64,000 bases of DNA from Pleionea litopenaei. Lineage in GTDB: Bacteria; Pseudomonadota; Gammaproteobacteria; Enterobacterales; Kangiellaceae. Where the stretch lies: positions 3,878,001 through 3,942,000 of the forward strand of contig NZ_CP133548.1 in assembly GCF_031198435.1 (NCBI RefSeq), given 5' to 3'. The notes under the pieces were generated by a model. The model did not search any database, was not told the DNA's origin, and saw nothing but the letters and a program-made list of their open reading frames with translations. A program made the translations under genes and the position numbers. The number at the start of each line of letters is the position of its first letter. Within the stretch, counting starts at the first letter, position 1. This document shows, piece by piece, positions 49,236-57,203 of this stretch.

Positions 49236-49298
49236 GTCACTTGTCCGGCACTTGGTGGCTGGATTTATTTAACGTAATGGAAATTTATGGAGATTATC

Positions 49299-49859
49299 AT
49301 GAGTACTGCATCACCCAATATTACACTTATCAACGATACCGCTTACGTCGCTCAATTTGTTGTTCGAAAGGGCGACCAAGTAATTGCTCGAATTCCAGGT
49401 GTCGAGCCAAAAGGAAAGATCCAAGTGCCTACGGCGGATAGTTATCAAGTTAGAGCTACGACCATTCTAAATAAAAACACTTATCAAACGGCACCGAAAA
49501 GTGCCAACCCCGGCGATAAGTTTCTTGCGCAAGTTTTACAAATTTCAGATCAAGGAACTTACGATTTTCAAATCGTTGAAGGAGCTGGCTCTAAGCCGGA
49601 TTCAATGGAGTTTGAATCGACCACTAACACGCCAGTCATTTTTAATGTGATGAAAGATGGTAAGCCACTGCAAAGTGTTACGGTAAGTGACAACTTCAAC
49701 AGTGAATCATTGTATGTCGGCAGTAACTTCTACATCTATGCCGTTATCAATGGTGTCACTACGGCTACTTTAAATACCAATGATGGTTCAGCTGTCATTA
49801 GTGCCGAAAATAACACCTCAGCACTTGAAGCGGACTACTTCCACTTAGAACTTAACTAG
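49299..49859 (+). CDS. Collar-cluster gene 1, two-module beta-rich protein
   Basis: This protein has 186 residues and no signal peptide or membrane helix. It consists of two beta-rich modules of about 75 residues (about 5-90 and 105-185). The second contains YIYAVINGVTTATLNTNDG, a pattern that recurs in gene 2 and at the start of gene 5. I know no named family. ATG 49299 has TATGGAG six bases upstream; the frame start at 49287 is rejected. It is the first gene of the collar-cluster unit (gene 1, 2, 3, collar protein) and is separated from gene 2 by a GC-rich hairpin. Confidence 0.7.
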   Translation: MSTASPNITLINDTAYVAQFVVRKGDQVIARIPGVEPKGKIQVPTADSYQVRATTILNKNTYQTAPKSANPGDKFLAQVLQISDQGTYDFQIVEGAGSKPDSMEFESTTNTPVIFNVMKDGKPLQSVTVSDNFNSESLYVGSNFYIYAVINGVTTATLNTNDGSAVISAENNTSALEADYFHLELN

Positions 49860-49866
49860 GTGACAG

Positions 49867-49888
49867 GGCCGCGATTTCAATCGCGGCC
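49867..49888 (+). promoter_or_regulatory. GC-rich intercistronic hairpin between genes 1 and 2
   Basis: GGCCGCGAT (49867-49875) and ATCGCGGCC (49880-49888) form a perfect 9-bp stem with a TTCA loop, starting 8 bases after the gene 1 stop. No T-run follows. It may stabilise the gene 1 message or partly terminate transcription, so that gene 1 is made in excess over gene 2. Confidence 0.45.
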
Positions 49889-49910
49889 GCTACTTTTAGG
49901 AAAGAGCAAG

Positions 49911-50507
49911 ATGGACGCTCATCAGTTAGTGATCACAAATTTAACGAAGCATCACGCGCATATTCGTTTAAAAATGGCTGCAGTTACCATTTGTGAACAA
50001 ATAATCTCAGCCTACTGTGAAGTCAGACTTGATAACATCTTAAATCCATTTGCCAATTTTTCGTGTGGTTGTCTCGTTGTGCAAGACGCTAAAACGATAA
50101 ACCTATTGCCACTCGATTCTCAGTACAGTAATGGTTGGTTTCGGTTAATCAATCGCCAAGTAGGGGCGTTATCTTGTCTTGAGCTAACTCAAACAAGTTA
50201 CTCAAAACTCAGTCGAGTGCTGCTGGAAAACTCGACGAGCATTGCTGCTCGATTCTTTGTTAAATCCAATGATTCGCTTGCCAGTTTTCAGCTAACTGTA
50301 CCGGCCAATGCAAGAAACGAAGTTAATTTGGCGCAAAGCATTAAGCTGGATGTCACCGTCAATGGCCTAACTCAATCGATCGTTAACTTGCCTCAAAGCT
50401 CAGCTCATTTTGTACTTAAAAAATGCCTAACAGAAGAGGGAGTGTTGGGGGGGGTTGCAATCGAGCAATCAGCTGAGTTTAAGTTTAGCGATTATAAATC
50501 GCGATGA
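49911..50507 (+). CDS. Collar-cluster gene 2, paralogue of gene 1
   Basis: This protein has 198 residues and the same two-module layout as gene 1. The second module has KLDVTVNGLTQSIVNLPQS, matching the gene 1 and gene 5 pattern, and ends EQSAEFKFSDYKSR where gene 1 ends EADYFHLELN. ATG 49911 has AGGA upstream; the frame to 49860 is rejected because it crosses the hairpin. A run of eight G (50447-50454) lies 18 codons before the stop. With seven G the frame would continue straight into gene 3. The similar ending of gene 1 supports the present stop. Confidence 0.65.
   Translation: MDAHQLVITNLTKHHAHIRLKMAAVTICEQIISAYCEVRLDNILNPFANFSCGCLVVQDAKTINLLPLDSQYSNGWFRLINRQVGALSCLELTQTSYSKLSRVLLENSTSIAARFFVKSNDSLASFQLTVPANARNEVNLAQSIKLDVTVNGLTQSIVNLPQSSAHFVLKKCLTEEGVLGGVAIEQSAEFKFSDYKSR
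50447..50454. repeat. Run of eight G at the gene 2/gene 3 border
   Basis: This is the longest G-run I noticed in the window. Loss of one G would fuse gene 2 in frame to gene 3; the present length keeps them separate. G-tracts of this length are typical contingency sites and also typical sequencing-error sites. Confidence 0.8.
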
Positions 50508-50538
50508 ATACCCTGTTTATATTGCTAAGGAGCGACGT

Positions 50539-53500
50539 ATGACTAATCAACAACCAAACGGAACTTTATATTGTCCTGGAAGAATAAATTTCAATATCAC
50601 TTGGAAGGCATCGAGTGATGGAGCGAGTGCGCAGGTGATATTCAAGAACTTAGATGCAGAGCAACAAAAGTCAGTATCGATTGAGCTTGGCAGTGAAGAA
50701 ACCAGCGTAGTACTTAACGCTAATGAGAAAACATCCATTGTCAGTGTCTGGTTATCGACCGCAGACGAATCTCCCAATTCTGTGAAATCTACATCGTCTG
50801 ATGATTGTGTTGAGTTTTGGTTGTCTTATCCCGTTGATCGAGACACGGTGTTTAAAAAGTCGATTGCTTGGTGGACGCGCCAAGGAATTCAACCGATACC
50901 TCCGATTAAATCGAATGCCTCTGAGCTAGACCATATACGAGTTGAGTTAGAAAATTGGGAAGCCGTATTCCCGTTTATGTGTTTAAATTCTCAACCGACG
51001 GACGTCATGATTAATTCAGATAATGAAGACGTCATTTATTTTGAACATTGGGATTCTTCTGAGCTTTACCAGACGCTTACCAAGGGGCAAACCTTTCCTT
51101 TACAGTTTTCAAAAGTAGAAGAAAGTTTAAAAGCCTTTCAGTCAAGTAGTCAGTTTATCAGTAGCTTTTATTCGCTGGCCAAGCCATTTGCTGATTTTCC
51201 AATATTGCTTCCCTTATTGAGAGAGCTTGATAACAACCAATCAATTGAAGACATCGAGAAGCAGTTAGAAAGTTGGCTTGGAGAACAATACACCTTAAAA
51301 GAGTTGGTGACTGGAAAAAAGAATGTACAGCTTTTAACTCAATGCTGGGAATCTCTTCTGGTTTTTCTTTTATTACCAACTTCAGATATTACTTCGACGG
51401 CCACATTGAAAGATATCATCGCCTCTATTCAGGTGTACTGCTATTTAGCGAAGCTGTTACAGGAAGTTCCTACCAGCCAAGTAACACCGTCTGAAGATGG
51501 AGAAACTGATTCTTCGAGTAACGAGAACAAAGATAACTATATAGCTAATGATATATCTGGGTTGCAGCAATGGTTGTATGCGCAATTGTTGGTGCCAGAT
51601 ATTTTAGTACCTGAAAACGACGGTTCAGTAACAAAGTCTAGTCAAGGATGGTATCGATTTGCGGGTATAGGCGAAGTTTGTGAGGTTTATTTAACAGAAA
51701 AAAGTTATTGCTTAGGGGATATTTCAAAAGTGAACAGTTTGATGGCGGGAGAGAGACGTCGTCAAAGAGAATGTTCTACCGAACGAAGCTGGACAACGGA
51801 AGTGGATATTAGTAACGATGATCTTCAGCACAATACGTCCACCAGTAATGAACACCACAACGAGCTCTCTGAGGAGGTTAGGCGCGTTATCTCTGATCAA
51901 GAAGAGAAGTTAAATGCGAACAAATTGACGCCGAACTATGAAAATCTAGGTTTGGTTATCAGCGGCTCTAGTGACACAACTTGGACCGACAATACATCGA
52001 CTCAAAATTTAGCGCAAACGTTTGCGCAAAAGATAACGGATTACGCAAGTGATAGCATTAAGCGTAAAGTAATGACTCATCGTCAAACCAAGCATTTTAA
52101 TGAAACAACCCATTCACTACGTGTCGACTTGGTAAATGATTCTGACGAAAAAGCCATTAATGCGGTTTATCGATGGATCGACATGTTGCATGTTTTTGAA
52201 ATGCAACGTAAACAAAGTGCATTAATTGTGGAGTTTATGGTTAATGCGCCTGAAGAAACCTTTTTGACATCAATAACCGATGAGAGTGGCGTTCCGATTT
52301 TTGAGCCGAGCGATCAGCAATTATTTTCGGACGCAGGTAATTATAACAAGATTACTCCGCAGAACTACTTAGAGTATCAAGCCTATTTCAACGCAGAACC
52401 ATTACCTAGACCACCAGAACAAAGTATTAGCATTAAAGAAAGCTTCAGCAATGAGGGTGGCCCAATCATTACGGGGAGTATTCCAATACCTGATGGTTAT
52501 CAAAGTGCAACGGGAGGAAAAATTAATCTAATGGTGAGTGACGCATCGCAGAAGCTCACCGGTTATTTTGGTCTAGAAAGCCCTATTAATGAAGGTGGGA
52601 AAAGCGGTGTTGAGTCTTCAGCAGACAGTTTATCTTTAAAAAGTGCAGAATTAAGCCATGACAATTCTAGCCATGACGATTCTAGTAATCACCATTCTAG
52701 CAATGACCATTCTAGCAATGACCATTCTACCAGAGATGATTCTAGCGATAATAATGCTAGCAAGAATAGTCCTAGTAAGAATAATCCAAACCCATCGTCG
52801 TTGAGCAGTTCCACCGACAATGACAATGAAGCGACTTCGAACATCGAGAGCCGTTCGATGGCGTTCACTGCATTAGACAAAGACAGTGCCGCCCAGAGCT
52901 CTGATTCGCCAACGCCGGTTAATGTTAATTTTCCGAATCCTCAGCCTGCGATCTATCAGGTTTCAGTGGCTAAACAATATAAAAGCGATGTTGCTTTTGG
53001 TATGGTTTGTAATGCAGCAAATTTTTCGGTTGAAGTCAGTATGACTTTGCTGCCTGATACTTCTACCTCGAGTAGTTACCCCCAACGATTAACAGCTTGG
53101 CAACAGCAGGTCTTTCGTATGCTTCTTCAAGCGTATCAAAGGCAGGTTAATGATTATAATCGACAGCTGCAAGCCCGTTTAAGTAAGGCGACAATGGGAC
53201 GCTCAAGAGAGATAGAGCAACAGAGTTTGAAAACAGCCATTAGTACGATTTTAACTGACACTTTAAACGATAAATCTCCAGAAGCTTTACGATTTATTGA
53301 TCGCGCTTTTGCGTGGCAAGATATGGCGTATCAGTTTTATGCTTGGCCAGCGGGTGAGCAGCCTGATGAACCCTGGGTGACTTCTCAAGATACATTACCT
53401 TATGACACCGATGCATTATTCAAAGCATTTCTTTCTGCGCAATCTGCGCGAGTTTTGCTTCCCGTTAAACGCCAGTTTTTGTCTGAAATATTATTTACAT

Positions 53501-53697
53501 TAAGTTTTCAACAGCGCTGGGGGCATCTTTTGGCTAACTCTGTGGTAACACAACAAGGGTATAGATTGGCTGAACTCATTCAAGAAGGTAATCAAGAAAC
53601 CAGTTCTGCGTCAATTAAGTGGTCTAAACGTGTTCCAACGACGCACGTTTATTTAGACTCGAACGAAAGCGCTTTAGCCGTCAGTGAACTTAAATAA
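50539..53697 (+). CDS. Collar-cluster gene 3, large multidomain protein
   Basis: This protein has 1052 residues and no signal peptide. A beta-rich N-terminus is followed by a helical part. A segment from about 375 begins with GIGEVCEVYLTEKSYCLGDI, followed by a charged helical region, and reaches YRWIDMLHVFEMQRK with LIVEFMVNAPEETF (about 543-575). A Ser/Asn/Asp/His low-complexity linker (706-750) comes next. The C-terminus has a coiled-coil-like stretch (about 850-915), AFAWQDMAYQFYAWPAG and FLSAQSARVLLPVKRQFL. From memory these match long uncharacterised proteins with consensus blocks such as YRWVDKxYxAQ and FYPYFWGR; I cannot verify that. AAGGAG precedes ATG 50539, within 31 bases of the gene 2 stop. 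Confidence 0.75.
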   Translation: MTNQQPNGTLYCPGRINFNITWKASSDGASAQVIFKNLDAEQQKSVSIELGSEETSVVLNANEKTSIVSVWLSTADESPNSVKSTSSDDCVEFWLSYPVDRDTVFKKSIAWWTRQGIQPIPPIKSNASELDHIRVELENWEAVFPFMCLNSQPTDVMINSDNEDVIYFEHWDSSELYQTLTKGQTFPLQFSKVEESLKAFQSSSQFISSFYSLAKPFADFPILLPLLRELDNNQSIEDIEKQLESWLGEQYTLKELVTGKKNVQLLTQCWESLLVFLLLPTSDITSTATLKDIIASIQVYCYLAKLLQEVPTSQVTPSEDGETDSSSNENKDNYIANDISGLQQWLYAQLLVPDILVPENDGSVTKSSQGWYRFAGIGEVCEVYLTEKSYCLGDISKVNSLMAGERRRQRECSTERSWTTEVDISNDDLQHNTSTSNEHHNELSEEVRRVISDQEEKLNANKLTPNYENLGLVISGSSDTTWTDNTSTQNLAQTFAQKITDYASDSIKRKVMTHRQTKHFNETTHSLRVDLVNDSDEKAINAVYRWIDMLHVFEMQRKQSALIVEFMVNAPEETFLTSITDESGVPIFEPSDQQLFSDAGNYNKITPQNYLEYQAYFNAEPLPRPPEQSISIKESFSNEGGPIITGSIPIPDGYQSATGGKINLMVSDASQKLTGYFGLESPINEGGKSGVESSADSLSLKSAELSHDNSSHDDSSNHHSSNDHSSNDHSTRDDSSDNNASKNSPSKNNPNPSSLSSSTDNDNEATSNIESRSMAFTALDKDSAAQSSDSPTPVNVNFPNPQPAIYQVSVAKQYKSDVAFGMVCNAANFSVEVSMTLLPDTSTSSSYPQRLTAWQQQVFRMLLQAYQRQVNDYNRQLQARLSKATMGRSREIEQQSLKTAISTILTDTLNDKSPEALRFIDRAFAWQDMAYQFYAWPAGEQPDEPWVTSQDTLPYDTDALFKAFLSAQSARVLLPVKRQFLSEILFTLSFQQRWGHLLANSVVTQQGYRLAELIQEGNQETSSASIKWSKRVPTTHVYLDSNESALAVSELK
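52654..52788 (+). repeat. 15-bp tandem repeat encoding pentapeptides
   Basis: Nine in-frame 15-base units encode S/T-x-D/N-x-S/N-type pentapeptides (SHDNS, SHDDS, SNHHS, SNDHS twice, then diverging TRDDS, SDNNA, SKNSP, SKNNP). Two adjacent units are identical at the DNA level. It lies in the linker of gene 3, is hydrophilic and probably unstructured. Gain or loss of units would keep the frame. Confidence 0.8.
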
Positions 53698-53711: not shown

Positions 53712-54287
53712 ATGTTTAGTGACGTTCCCGTTGGTACTATCGTTGCTTTCGCCGGTAACATTGATGACACAACTCCTTTAGAGGGAGTAACACCAAAACA
53801 AAATTCAGAAATGGTCACCTCTTTATTGGCCAGAGGGTGGGCCTACTGTAATGGACAACTGGTCGATAAAATGCAATTCAATGACTTGTATAAAGTGATC
53901 GGCGGAATCTATGGTGAACAAGGAAATGCTTTTCGATTACCTGATTATCGAGGTTACTTCTTACGTGCCGTTGACAATGGCGCAAAGCGTGATACTGAGT
54001 CTCGAGAAGCATCGGTTGGAGGTCAGTCATCTGGCGTCGGTACGTCTCAAAAGGATCAGTTTCAAGGACATGAACATCAATACTCTGGCGGTCAATCGGA
54101 TGGACCTGTTCCAGCAGAGTCAGGTGCCGATGCGGTGATGATAGAGGTAAAAGATACTACTGCGATCACCGAAAAACAAGGTTATGGTTCGCCTCGTTAT
54201 GGTAAAGAAACTCGTCCTATCAACATAGCCGTCAACTATCTGATCAAAGTTCGTCAGATCGATCCTCGCAGTAACGTTATCTTTTAA
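53712..54287 (+). CDS. Phage tail-collar domain protein (microcystin-dependent protein-like)
   Basis: This protein of 191 residues has the tail-collar fold of phage short-tail-fibre tips and bacterial MdpB-like proteins. The opening VPVGTIVAFAGN, then GWAYCNGQLVDKMQFNDLY, VIGGIYGEQGNAFRLPDYRGYFLRAVD and the ending RYGKETRPINIAVNYLIKV match. The His-rich QGHEHQYSGG part resembles metal-coordinating trimer tips. The protein should form trimers at the end of a fibre. AGGAG stands just before the ATG, 14 bases after gene 3. No other phage gene is present, so it is a domesticated or system-specific use of the fold. Confidence 0.88.
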   Translation: MFSDVPVGTIVAFAGNIDDTTPLEGVTPKQNSEMVTSLLARGWAYCNGQLVDKMQFNDLYKVIGGIYGEQGNAFRLPDYRGYFLRAVDNGAKRDTESREASVGGQSSGVGTSQKDQFQGHEHQYSGGQSDGPVPAESGADAVMIEVKDTTAITEKQGYGSPRYGKETRPINIAVNYLIKVRQIDPRSNVIF

Positions 54288-54455: not shown

Positions 54456-54511
54456 TTGTTTGGTCATCGTTTTCAAAGACCTAGAAAACAACAAGGTAAG
54501 TGACCAAACAA
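54456..54511 (+). promoter_or_regulatory. Long leader hairpin before collar-cluster gene 5
   Basis: TTGTTTGGTCA (54456-54466) pairs perfectly with TGACCAAACAA (54501-54511), and inside it GTTTTC (54469-54474) pairs with GAAAAC (54484-54489). It ends 44 bases before the start codon and lacks a terminal T-run. A regulatory RNA leader or a protein-binding inverted repeat are both possible. Confidence 0.5.
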
Positions 54512-54555
54512 CTTCAAGAGGATTTTTTATTAAACGCAAACTTGAGGATATTGCC

Positions 54556-56232
54556 ATGAGTAACAAAGACCACCTTAGATTAATCAATCTCATACCTAAA
54601 AATGTTGCCGCCGACGTAGAGTTTACGGTAAAGCCAGCATTAGGTCCTGCTGAAAAATTAACGGTTGAAGCAGGCGACCATCTTTTACACACCGTTGATC
54701 CCAAAGCTGGCTTATGGACCATTAGCGCGGTTGTTGACGGTGTAAAGACTGAAGAATCAATGACGCTGTTTGCTGATGATTTTGTGATATTAGGTATCAG
54801 TCATTGGCACCCCGATCTATTTAAAGCAAAAATCTCGTCGAGTGACCTCGCCATTAATTTTTTGCCTCACTCAATCGAATCGATCTGTGAGCGTTATGAC
54901 GAGCTGTCTGAGCGCGGAAAGCTATCAATATTTGAACAGGCCAGTCAGGTGTTACTCAATGATTTGCAGTTAGGTAAGAATTATACGGTGCCGACCATTG
55001 GGCATATGATTAAGATTTTAAGTCGCCATAAATTTAAAGATATAAAAGGCGAAATGCAGCTGATTGAATCGCTGATACAAGGGGTTTTGAACAGTGATGT
55101 AGAAATCGACCCACAAACGAAAGCGTTTCTACTGCTGCAAATGCCTTCTCCCATCTTTTTAGATATGCCAAGAGCAGGTAATGAAGACTACAGTGAATCC
55201 ATCAGTTCGTTACGTTATTTATTACAAGGTGTTGATGAGCAACAAAATATGTTGGATCAAAGTGTTGACCTTAATGTCCTTCCTGAAATGACGAATTTTT
55301 TCGATGATGAAGTAACGGCCAAGGCTAAACAGGATTATGCGGAAAAATATGCACAGCAGCATTTCTTGAATCGTAGTTGTAAACGATTAAAGGCTAAGTC
55401 ATCGGTCTACCTTAATCATTTGTCTTTACATATCAATTCAGAAGGTGACGCTGATGATGTTGAGTTTAAGTCTCTGGATAACTTAACGGTAAAGCTTTGT
55501 CCTGAAGATGATTTTAGTGGTCGCAGTAAAAAGAACTTTGGTATTGGCGAGTTAGTTTCACTTTCGCTTTCGTCAAAAAGCAAATTGTCGGAACAGCAAT
55601 TAGCACAACTCTATTGGAGAGTCGAGAGTGGGTCAGGTTACTTGTTTTCAAATGGCTATGGCGAGGCCTGTTATGTTGCAGGCGCAAAAGAAGAGCAAGC
55701 AAGTTTGGTCTTGTCCTATTTCTGTGGCGAGCACTCGGGTGAAGATATACTCGATGTTGATGTGCCAACAGTGGCACCCGTTGATGCCACTATGGTTCAG
55801 AGCCAAGGAACTGGATTGCGTCATATTCATAATACATTTTCGGTTGGCTTCAAAGGCGAAATATTATTGACGCCAGATGATGTCTCTTATGCCAATGTCA
55901 CTTTCAGAGAAGGTACATGTGTCGGTGTCGGAACTGGATGGTTGAACTACTTAAATGGTGAAGTTCATGCCATCGGAACGGCTTGCACCATCACCAATAA
56001 TAGGGTGAATGGGATTGATACGGTATTTACTGGCTCGAGAGGTCAGCCATACGGTGTCGGTGACTTTAATTGGCCCATTCCGTGGCAGTATAGAGAAGGT
56101 ACTGGAAACTGGACGACATTTACGACGGCTAATCATCATCAAACGTCGGGTGCTGAAGGACAGGCAATGATTGAAAAGAAAGGCGCAGGTCCATTTACCA
56201 AAAATGCGGCTGATCCAGATTCGAACTATTAG
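54556..56232 (+). CDS. Collar-cluster gene 5, multidomain hypothetical protein
   Basis: This protein has 558 residues and no signal peptide. The first ~75 residues (LRLINLIPKNVAADVEFTV to SAVVDGVKTEESMTLFADDF) repeat the module seen in genes 1 and 2. A helical middle (about 100-290) follows. From about 320 it is beta-rich with GIGELVSLSLSSKSKL and LYWRVESGSGYLFSNGYGE, Ig-like. The end contains GTGLRHIHNTFSVGFKGEI, FREGTCVGVGTGWLNYLNGE, DFNWPIPWQYREG and GAGPFTKNAAD, a domain I remember from other uncharacterised bacterial proteins but cannot name. ATG 54556 has GAGGA upstream; the frame start at 54460 lies inside the leader hairpin and is rejected. Confidence 0.7.
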   Translation: MSNKDHLRLINLIPKNVAADVEFTVKPALGPAEKLTVEAGDHLLHTVDPKAGLWTISAVVDGVKTEESMTLFADDFVILGISHWHPDLFKAKISSSDLAINFLPHSIESICERYDELSERGKLSIFEQASQVLLNDLQLGKNYTVPTIGHMIKILSRHKFKDIKGEMQLIESLIQGVLNSDVEIDPQTKAFLLLQMPSPIFLDMPRAGNEDYSESISSLRYLLQGVDEQQNMLDQSVDLNVLPEMTNFFDDEVTAKAKQDYAEKYAQQHFLNRSCKRLKAKSSVYLNHLSLHINSEGDADDVEFKSLDNLTVKLCPEDDFSGRSKKNFGIGELVSLSLSSKSKLSEQQLAQLYWRVESGSGYLFSNGYGEACYVAGAKEEQASLVLSYFCGEHSGEDILDVDVPTVAPVDATMVQSQGTGLRHIHNTFSVGFKGEILLTPDDVSYANVTFREGTCVGVGTGWLNYLNGEVHAIGTACTITNNRVNGIDTVFTGSRGQPYGVGDFNWPIPWQYREGTGNWTTFTTANHHQTSGAEGQAMIEKKGAGPFTKNAADPDSNY

Positions 56233-56600: not shown

Positions 56601-57203
56601 ATGAGTTCTGATTATTCTAATTCCACCTCGCACAACGATTCAATTTCACAAAGCAATCGTGTTGTCGAAAATAATAAAATTACACTAAAAGTTCCCTGTG
56701 ATTTAATTGAGGGCACTTACAATGATGTGCCTTCAATTACAGCAATCAGTCGTTTTCATATCATTCCAAACACTCAAGAAGATTGGCTTTCGTTAATTGT
56801 TAATAATGAAGGTGAACGCGTTGCCGTTGAGCAGTTAAAAATTCAATTTACGCCTGCTCGTCCAGGGCAAGAATACCTCGAAGGGTTACAAAGAATATTC
56901 TTACTTTGCGACATTGAGAATAAGACAAGTGAAGGTGAGTGGGCATTTGCTGCCAATGGCATAGTCATTCCCAAAGAACCAGAGTTAACCGACTTTGAAA
57001 TCACCACCGAGCTATTGAATGATAAAAAGCAATTGTTAATTATCATCGATAAAGTGGGCAATACGGGTTCTGAGCCAGGGAAAACGCATTATTTAAAGCT
57101 AGGATTCAATTTTGTGGCAACCTGTACCAATATGAATGGGTATACCAAAGCCTATTTGTCACAAGATCCTAGCGTCGATTTGGGTCGACCCATTGGCGGT
57201 TAG
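56601..57203 (+). CDS. Collar-cluster gene 6, hypothetical protein
   Basis: This protein has 200 residues. A polar Ser/Asn-rich N-terminus (about 1-25) is followed by a single beta-rich domain (ISRFHIIPNTQEDWLSLIVN; YLEGLQRIFLLCDIENKT; DFEITTELLNDKKQLLIIID; KTHYLKLGFNFVATC). There is no signal peptide or membrane helix. I recognise no family. AGGAAG lies four bases before the ATG. It overlaps the stop of the convergent kinase gene by four bases. Confidence 0.65.
   Translation: MSSDYSNSTSHNDSISQSNRVVENNKITLKVPCDLIEGTYNDVPSITAISRFHIIPNTQEDWLSLIVNNEGERVAVEQLKIQFTPARPGQEYLEGLQRIFLLCDIENKTSEGEWAFAANGIVIPKEPELTDFEITTELLNDKKQLLIIIDKVGNTGSEPGKTHYLKLGFNFVATCTNMNGYTKAYLSQDPSVDLGRPIGG

What the first reader, a model, noticed from the sequence alone, without database searches (positions are those of the whole stretch)
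50539..53697. 1052-residue protein with a conserved but unnamed architecture
The blocks GIGEVCEVYL, YRWIDMLHVFEMQRK, AFAWQDMAYQFYAWPAG and ARVLLPVKRQFL are spaced along the protein and look like conserved cores, in contrast to the low-complexity linker. From memory, similar blocks (YRWVDK, FYPYFWGR, VPVRPGF) occur in long uncharacterised proteins of other phyla. If so, this is a widespread family without a function, here tied to a collar protein by a 14-base gap.
Basis: partly seen in the sequence, partly recalled or inferred. Interest (0 to 1): 0.6.

Follow-up and report, generated by a model that had tools for sequence, protein, structure and literature searches.

The report
Unnamed partner of swappable toxin-like enzymes
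This gene belongs to an unnamed protein family found in at least 12 bacterial and archaeal phyla whose members nearly always sit directly upstream of a different, usually toxin-like enzyme gene, so it is probably a shared carrier or delivery part for many weapons; in this genome and three distant ones the partner is instead a phage-tail-tip (collar) protein.

Summary
The 1052-residue ORF is real (perfect ribosome-binding site; 39-40% identical homologue in the same bacterial family), and its four blocks are the conserved cores of a true family. Pfam, NCBIfam, PHROGs and PDB have no match. One scan of 84,980 genomes gave 298 relatives. The 80 kept span 12 phyla, including haloarchaea and Bacillota. 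The important finding is the downstream neighbour. It is on the same strand in 84 of 88 loci and within 50 nt in 72 (the upstream gene: 21 of 81). Its type changes between close relatives: patatin, arginine deiminase, Het-C, PhoD, phospholipase D, LodA lysine oxidase, amidase, M23 peptidase, pre-toxin/EndoU/Ntox28. In the window and three distant genomes it is a collar protein. Best reading: a stand-alone two-gene module, a conserved carrier (probably membrane-interacting) plus an interchangeable effector. Coupling and swapping are shown; delivery and membrane insertion are inferred. A contractile injector is not required (16 of 39 genomes show none), and defence-island context is absent. The window's member is divergent; its own cargo and target are unknown.

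The parts
50539..53697 (+). Family protein, 1052 aa; divergent member of the unnamed carrier-like family
50527..50532 (+). Ribosome-binding site AAGGAG of the family gene
   Evidence: sequence
50539..50928 (+). N-terminal segment (about residues 1-130) of beta-sandwich-like composition; similar W-x-S/A-x-x-D-G type starts are seen by eye in L014, L015 and L115 in place of the usual FRFxxxRxP start
   Evidence: sequence inspection; inference
51664..51693 (+). Block GIGEVCEVYL (residues 376-385), start of the conserved core
51910..51984 (+). Approximate position of the segment aligned with the family's amphipathic beta hairpin (consensus AGVTVSASYGPVEVTANANF); degenerate in the window protein
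52168..52212 (+). Block YRWIDMLHVFEMQRK (residues 544-558); family consensus YRWVDK
52636..52848 (+). Low-complexity S/D/N/H-rich linker (about residues 700-770), an insertion absent from most relatives
53305..53355 (+). Block AFAWQDMAYQFYAWPAG (residues 923-939); family consensus AFEWxxMTYxFYPYFWG
53446..53481 (+). Block ARVLLPVKRQFL (residues 970-981); family consensus ARVxVPVRPGxE
53712..54287 (+). Collar (short tail fibre) protein, 191 aa, in the partner (+1) position
   Evidence: PF07484; PHROG tail fibre families; conserved synteny
49287..49859 (+). 190-aa protein of unknown family, conserved upstream of the homologue in G025
49860..50507 (+). 215-aa protein directly upstream; a similar-sized gene is in the same place in G025
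54460..56232 (+). 590-aa protein downstream of the collar gene, no family match; possible further member of the cluster
56601..57203 (+). 200-aa protein, no significant family match; possible further member of the cluster

Best explanation
The gene encodes a conserved carrier-type subunit of a stand-alone, two-gene biological-conflict module. Across the family this subunit is co-translated with a downstream effector whose type is freely exchanged (membrane, peptidoglycan, nucleic-acid, protein or oxidative chemistry). SHOWN: homology, wide distribution, tight downstream coupling, exchange of partners, lack of signal peptides, a helix / amphipathic beta-hairpin / helix sequence pattern, natural splitting of the N-terminal region into a separate upstream gene, and lack of a shared injector or defence neighbourhood. 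INFERRED: the core oligomerises and inserts its hairpins into a target membrane, the N-terminal region holds the partner protein or keeps the complex closed, and the effector is delivered into or onto a competing cell after release by an unidentified route (lysis or an unknown exporter). In the window's type the effector slot is taken by a collar/short-tail-fibre protein, which most simply would be a receptor-binding subunit of the released complex; its active cargo (perhaps one of the neighbouring 190-, 215-, 590- or 200-aa proteins) is not identified.
For: +1 gene same strand in 84/88 loci, gap <=50 nt in 72, against 52/81 and 21/81 for the -1 gene. Pfam of 73 +1 (or nearest large +2) proteins: Patatin 10, PAD 4, Het-C 3, PhoD 3, PLD 2, Pre-toxin TG 2, and single EndoU, Ntox28, Amidase_3, Peptidase_M23, amine oxidase, Rv2525c GH-like; LodA_N E 1e-60 with a LodB-like flavoprotein next to it. 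Partner class changes at least 22 times on the family tree for 11 classes. No signal-peptide-like N-terminus in 74/74 family proteins and 71/73 partners. Helix/beta-hairpin/helix amphipathicity. Short forms (about 600-660 aa) with the N-terminal region as a separate upstream gene in Legionella, Flavivirga, Thermomonospora, Marinobacter and others. C-terminal extensions resembling peptidoglycan-binding (L079) or F5/8-type C (L102) modules. Collar in +1 position in 4 of 4 members of the collar-coupled type whose downstream DNA is available.
Against: No structure could be computed (structure prediction closed), so membrane insertion rests on a sequence pattern, and the window's own hairpin is degenerate. 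Many +1 proteins have no recognised domain. No exporter or release gene is shared by the loci. A few +1 genes look like housekeeping or unrelated genes (Mur ligase in L016, PPK2 in L063), where the true partner is at +2 or -1 or missing. The short forms carry a Trypco1 gene (PF19493), a domain first described in intracellular conflict systems (PMC7159879).
Confidence: 0.5

Rival explanations
1. Cargo or cargo adaptor of contractile injectors (eCIS/T6SS): the family protein loads swappable effectors into a tail-like machine; the collar protein would be a tail-tip part.
For: eCIS marker Pvc16_N (PF14065) in 10 of 36 family-bearing genomes, including the window's own, against 15 of 299 genomes sampled from the phylum; one homologue (L013) lies beside a T6SS cluster; collar neighbour in the window's type.
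Against: 16 of 39 family genomes have none of Pvc16_N, phage sheath PF04984 or VipB PF05943, including nearly complete ones. In the window's genome the eCIS marker is about 3.4 Mb from this gene. No tail genes recur around the family. Enrichment may reflect shared lifestyle and taxonomy: the background was drawn from one phylum only.
Confidence: 0.2
2. Intracellular anti-phage (abortive infection) system: the family protein is a sensor and the +1 gene a swappable suicide effector.
For: Effector exchange with patatin, PLD and nucleases is typical of such systems; weak PADLOC hits of +1 proteins to phospholipase effectors and DrmC; no signal peptides; Trypco1 in short-form loci.
Against: Partners include peptidoglycan amidase, M23 peptidase, LodA lysine oxidase and pre-toxin proteins, which suit extracellular targets. 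Operon neighbours match defence models in only 2 of 82 cases. No recognisable nucleotide-binding or sensor domain in the family.
Confidence: 0.15
3. Chaperone, maturation or immunity factor that keeps diverse secreted enzymes soluble or inactive until release.
For: Tight co-translation and one conserved protein with many enzymes.
Against: An immunity protein should co-vary with its toxin, whereas here the core is conserved while partners change. A 600-1000 aa protein with surface-binding-like C-terminal extensions is unusual for a chaperone.
Confidence: 0.1
4. In the window specifically, a decayed or repurposed surface-fibre cluster: family protein, collar protein and small neighbouring proteins form a cell-surface or released adhesive structure with no toxic cargo.
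For: Collar plus several small proteins without family matches; loss of the HEN motif in the window and G025 (KNS, NTN) and low match at invariant columns (24/42).
Against: The collar-coupled L115 keeps the motif (AHVEN); collar synteny is held over four diverged genomes.
Confidence: 0.15

Closest known systems
Polymorphic toxin systems
   Same: Conserved delivery part combined with exchangeable toxin domains; some partners are classical polymorphic-toxin domains (Pre-toxin TG, EndoU, Ntox28).
   Different: Carrier and effector are separate genes; partners share no common N-terminal trafficking domain (patatins, LodA and PhoD begin at or near the enzyme domain); no conserved immunity gene or known secretion signal was found.
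Binary (A plus B) toxins
   Same: Separate carrier-type and enzyme genes in one transcription unit; carrier larger than the enzyme in many loci; amphipathic hairpin flanked by helices.
   Different: No sequence similarity to any solved or Pfam toxin component; receptor-binding domain not identified; no signal peptide; far broader range of partner enzymes and hosts, archaea included.
Extracellular contractile injection systems and their associated toxins
   Same: Patchy distribution over similar phyla (haloarchaea, Streptomyces, cyanobacteria, Bacteroidota); diverse toxin-like companions; collar protein in the window's type.
   Different: No sheath, tube or baseplate genes at the loci; many family genomes lack any contractile system.
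Broken-hairpin toxins (Lipocone paper, PMC12419801)
   Same: Diverse toxins without signal peptide, secretion system or immunity gene, proposed to be trafficked by a beta-hairpin element.
   Different: There a short C-terminal domain is fused to the toxin; here a 600-1000 aa separate protein. The text passages read in that paper do not describe this family.

Membership tests
The unnamed family itself | Conserved core with motifs G[IV]G[ED]..., Y.xGE.AHIEN, YRWVDK, EF.VPEPA, FEW..M.Y.FYPYFWG, ARV.VPVRPG, W...VPT.L..L | tested here: met
   Window aligns along the whole core and keeps 24 of 42 nearly invariant residues; HEN and FYPYFWG motifs degenerate
The unnamed family itself | Closely spaced same-strand partner gene directly downstream | tested here: met
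   Collar gene 14 nt downstream with its own RBS
Polymorphic toxin system | Toxin domain fused C-terminally to a shared trafficking or delivery region | tested here: not met
   Median C-terminal extension past the core is 18 aa; effectors are separate genes
Polymorphic toxin system | Adjacent immunity gene | tested here: inconclusive
   No recurrent small gene after the partner in the neighbour clusters; immunity proteins are too diverse to exclude
Binary (A+B) toxin | Separate genes for carrier and enzyme | tested here: met
Binary (A+B) toxin | Carrier forms an oligomeric pore | not testable with these tools
eCIS / T6SS cargo module | Contractile injector in the same genome | tested here: not met
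   16 of 39 family genomes have none of three markers; the window's own genome does have the eCIS marker
Anti-phage abortive infection system | Located among defence genes | tested here: not met
   2 of 82 operon neighbours match PADLOC at E <= 1e-5
Phage structural protein | Member of a phage protein family or present in phage genomes | tested here: not met
   No PHROG, no match in 50,697 phage records; 3 viral-contig loci only
Phage tail collar family (neighbour gene only) | PF07484 above the curated cut-off | tested here: met
   56 bits against a cut-off of 24

The most novel reading that the evidence does not exclude
A previously undescribed, prokaryote-wide protein-delivery module: one conserved carrier that assembles a membrane-penetrating complex and takes up interchangeable enzymes encoded by the next gene, with a type, including the window's, that uses a phage collar protein as its targeting tip.
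Probability: 0.35. Interest if true: 0.9.

Novelty: new variant of a known kind. Interest (0 to 1): 0.68.

Why it matters
A large protein family present in at least 12 phyla, on chromosomes and plasmids, in bacteria and archaea, carries no name in the family libraries searched and is consistently paired with exchangeable toxin-like enzymes. If it is a carrier, it would be a new delivery route for antagonistic enzymes, and a marker by which many new toxins can be found: the gene next to it. It also offers a way into the question of how signal-less enzymes such as LodA-type oxidases or patatins might reach their targets. In the window's type the use of a collar protein would link phage-tail receptor-binding modules to a non-phage system.

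Tried and rejected
Profile search of the alignment against PDB: only coronavirus nsp8 coiled-coil matches at E > 0.1, judged chance. Pfam and NCBIfam scans of 45 members: isolated weak hits to unrelated families in 1-2 members each. tblastn against phage records: none. Using all seven diverse members for the genome scan failed because no stretch was conserved enough; three central members were used instead, so the 80 kept loci lean to the canonical branch. Homology between the small window proteins (190, 215, 590, 200 aa): nothing significant. Literature searches for the motif, for patatin/PAD/Het-C/PhoD combinations and for collar/toxin combinations found no paper on this family; only open-licence PMC papers are held. 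Considered and set aside: an immunity role (core conserved while partners change) and an ordinary prophage tail gene (no PHROG).

Full report
OBSERVATION. The ORF exists and looks well translated: 50455-53697 from the first TTG, with a strong AAGGAG site 6 nt before ATG 50539, giving 1052 aa. The collar gene starts 14 nt after the stop and has its own AAAGGAG site. Neighbours are two small genes upstream (190 and 215 aa), then downstream collar, a 590-aa and a 200-aa protein, and on the other strand a Ser/Thr kinase with TPRs and an FHA protein.

NO KNOWN FAMILY. Pfam, NCBIfam, PHROGs and the PDB have nothing for the window protein, nor do Pfam and NCBIfam consistently for 45 diverse relatives, nor the PDB for the family profile.

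REAL AND WIDE HOMOLOGY. The gene is single in its own genome and rare among close relatives: 39% identical in one genome of the same family (G025, contig cut), then distant matches in G036, G050, G073, G214 and on plasmids of Chryseobacterium and the haloarchaeon Natronorubrum. The seven align along the whole core. A scan of 84,980 genomes with three central members returned 298 relatives, of which 80 were kept. Titles name Pseudomonadota, Acidobacteriota, Actinomycetota, Chloroflexota, Bacteroidota, Verrucomicrobiota, Cyanobacteriota, Desulfobacterota, Cloacimonadota, KSB1, Bacillota (Neobacillus) and Halobacteriota. More are on plasmids. Consensus motifs: GIGDLxVVxQxLxxYExGEVAHIENVLxGE, YRWVDKxYxAQVxNYGKRLMFEFxVPEPAAF, FFEQAFEWxxMTYxFYPYFWGRK, GAARVxVPVRPGxExAVL, GxPWxxxxPTxLVxLQxD. 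The window is a divergent member: 24 of 42 nearly invariant positions kept, AHIEN reduced to SKVNS.

ARCHITECTURE. The core is about 600 aa, preceded in most members by about 370 aa starting with an F.F...R.P motif. In Legionella, Flavivirga, Thermomonospora, Marinobacter, a Saprospiraceae and a Methylococcaceae genome the upstream part is a separate gene and the core stands alone, so the two are natural modules. No signal peptide was indicated in 74 of 74 members by a hydropathy check, and few TM-like stretches. The core contains a conserved pattern: amphipathic helix, then about 25 residues with strong two-residue periodicity (SVSASYGPVEVTANANF-like, a beta hairpin), then a long amphipathic helix. 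I read this as a candidate membrane-inserting tip; that is inference. A few members have C-terminal extensions that resemble peptidoglycan-binding or F5/8C modules, consistent with an extracellular target.

THE PARTNER GENE. In 84 of 88 loci the next gene downstream is on the same strand, in 72 within 50 nt (median 15.5 nt). The gene upstream is on the same strand in 52 of 81 and within 50 nt in 21. Of 73 partner proteins (the +1 gene, or +2 where +1 is very small), 10 are patatins, 4 arginine deiminases, 3 Het-C, 3 PhoD, 2 phospholipase D, 2 pre-toxin TG, and others EndoU, Ntox28, amidase, M23 peptidase, amine oxidase, Rv2525c-type glycosidase-like. Two further genomes carry LodA lysine oxidase and a LodB-like flavoprotein. 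LodA-type oxidases are known antimicrobial H2O2 producers (PMC4417212). Several recurrent partners are unnamed, such as a family with a ...SIFSHxxxxGPVLxN... motif in L016, L029, L063, L079, L085, L089 and L116. On the family tree the partner class changes at least 22 times for 11 classes. Chryseobacterium members have a patatin and an M15 peptidase upstream and a fibre-like or membrane protein downstream.

THE WINDOW'S TYPE. The window, G050 (L014), G214 (L015) and G506 (L115) all have a collar protein directly after the family gene. In L014 and L115 it was hidden by a longer spurious frame and was recovered by translating all frames. The window and G025 pair firmly in the tree; the long branches of L014 and L015 make the unity of the collar type as a clade unsure. 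Two of the four have an RNA-polymerase-sigma-like gene just upstream (L015, L115; recognised by sequence inspection only). The partner slot is thus conserved while its content has become a receptor-binding type protein.

RIVALS TESTED. Contractile delivery: the eCIS marker is enriched (10/36 against 15/299), but the comparison is not matched for taxonomy, and 16 of 39 genomes lack eCIS marker, phage sheath and T6SS sheath (three of the 39 genomes were not in the eCIS-marker search). Defence: 2 of 82 operon neighbours match defence models, and several partners suit extracellular targets. Prophage: no PHROG, no phage record. No common exporter or release gene is seen near the loci.

CONCLUSION. 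Shown: a real, unnamed, very widespread family, tightly coupled to exchangeable toxin-like enzymes, with a collar-coupled type that includes the window. Inferred: it is the carrier or delivery subunit of a two-gene conflict module. Not known: fold, pore activity, export route, target, and the window's cargo.

Noticed in passing
G000:C1:562234-565851 (own genome, outside the window): The genome carries a contractile injection cluster: phage-sheath family match and Pvc16_N match 3 kb apart, about 3.4 Mb from this gene.
   Followed up: partly
window 54460-56232: 590-aa protein without any family match; its C-terminal part (TFREGTCVGVGTGW...NWPIPWQYREG) looks like a distinct conserved domain, but the motif occurs in no other fetched locus.
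   Followed up: partly
L076, L078, L080, L081, L083, L086, L090, L100: In loci with the short form of the family the next small gene belongs to one cluster; the L090 copy matches Trypco1 (PF19493), a domain first described in intracellular conflict systems.
   Followed up: partly
L016, L029, L063, L079, L085, L089, L116: A recurrent unnamed partner protein with a SIFSHxxxxGPVLxN-like motif, a candidate new effector family.
   Followed up: no
L013 (G036): The homologue with a pre-toxin-like and a nuclease-like partner lies beside a T6SS cluster on the opposite strand.
   Followed up: partly
L015:12349-12948 and L115:6604-7299: A sigma-factor-like gene lies immediately upstream of two collar-coupled family genes.
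   Followed up: no
L032, L039, L053, L056: Protein-arginine deiminase domain proteins (913-988 aa) encoded directly after the family gene in bacteria.
   Followed up: no
L102, L103, L104: Three contigs catalogued as viral carry the family; L103 and L104 carry a fibre-like gene next to it. Whether they are proviruses, plasmids or mis-binned chromosome was not examined.
   Followed up: no
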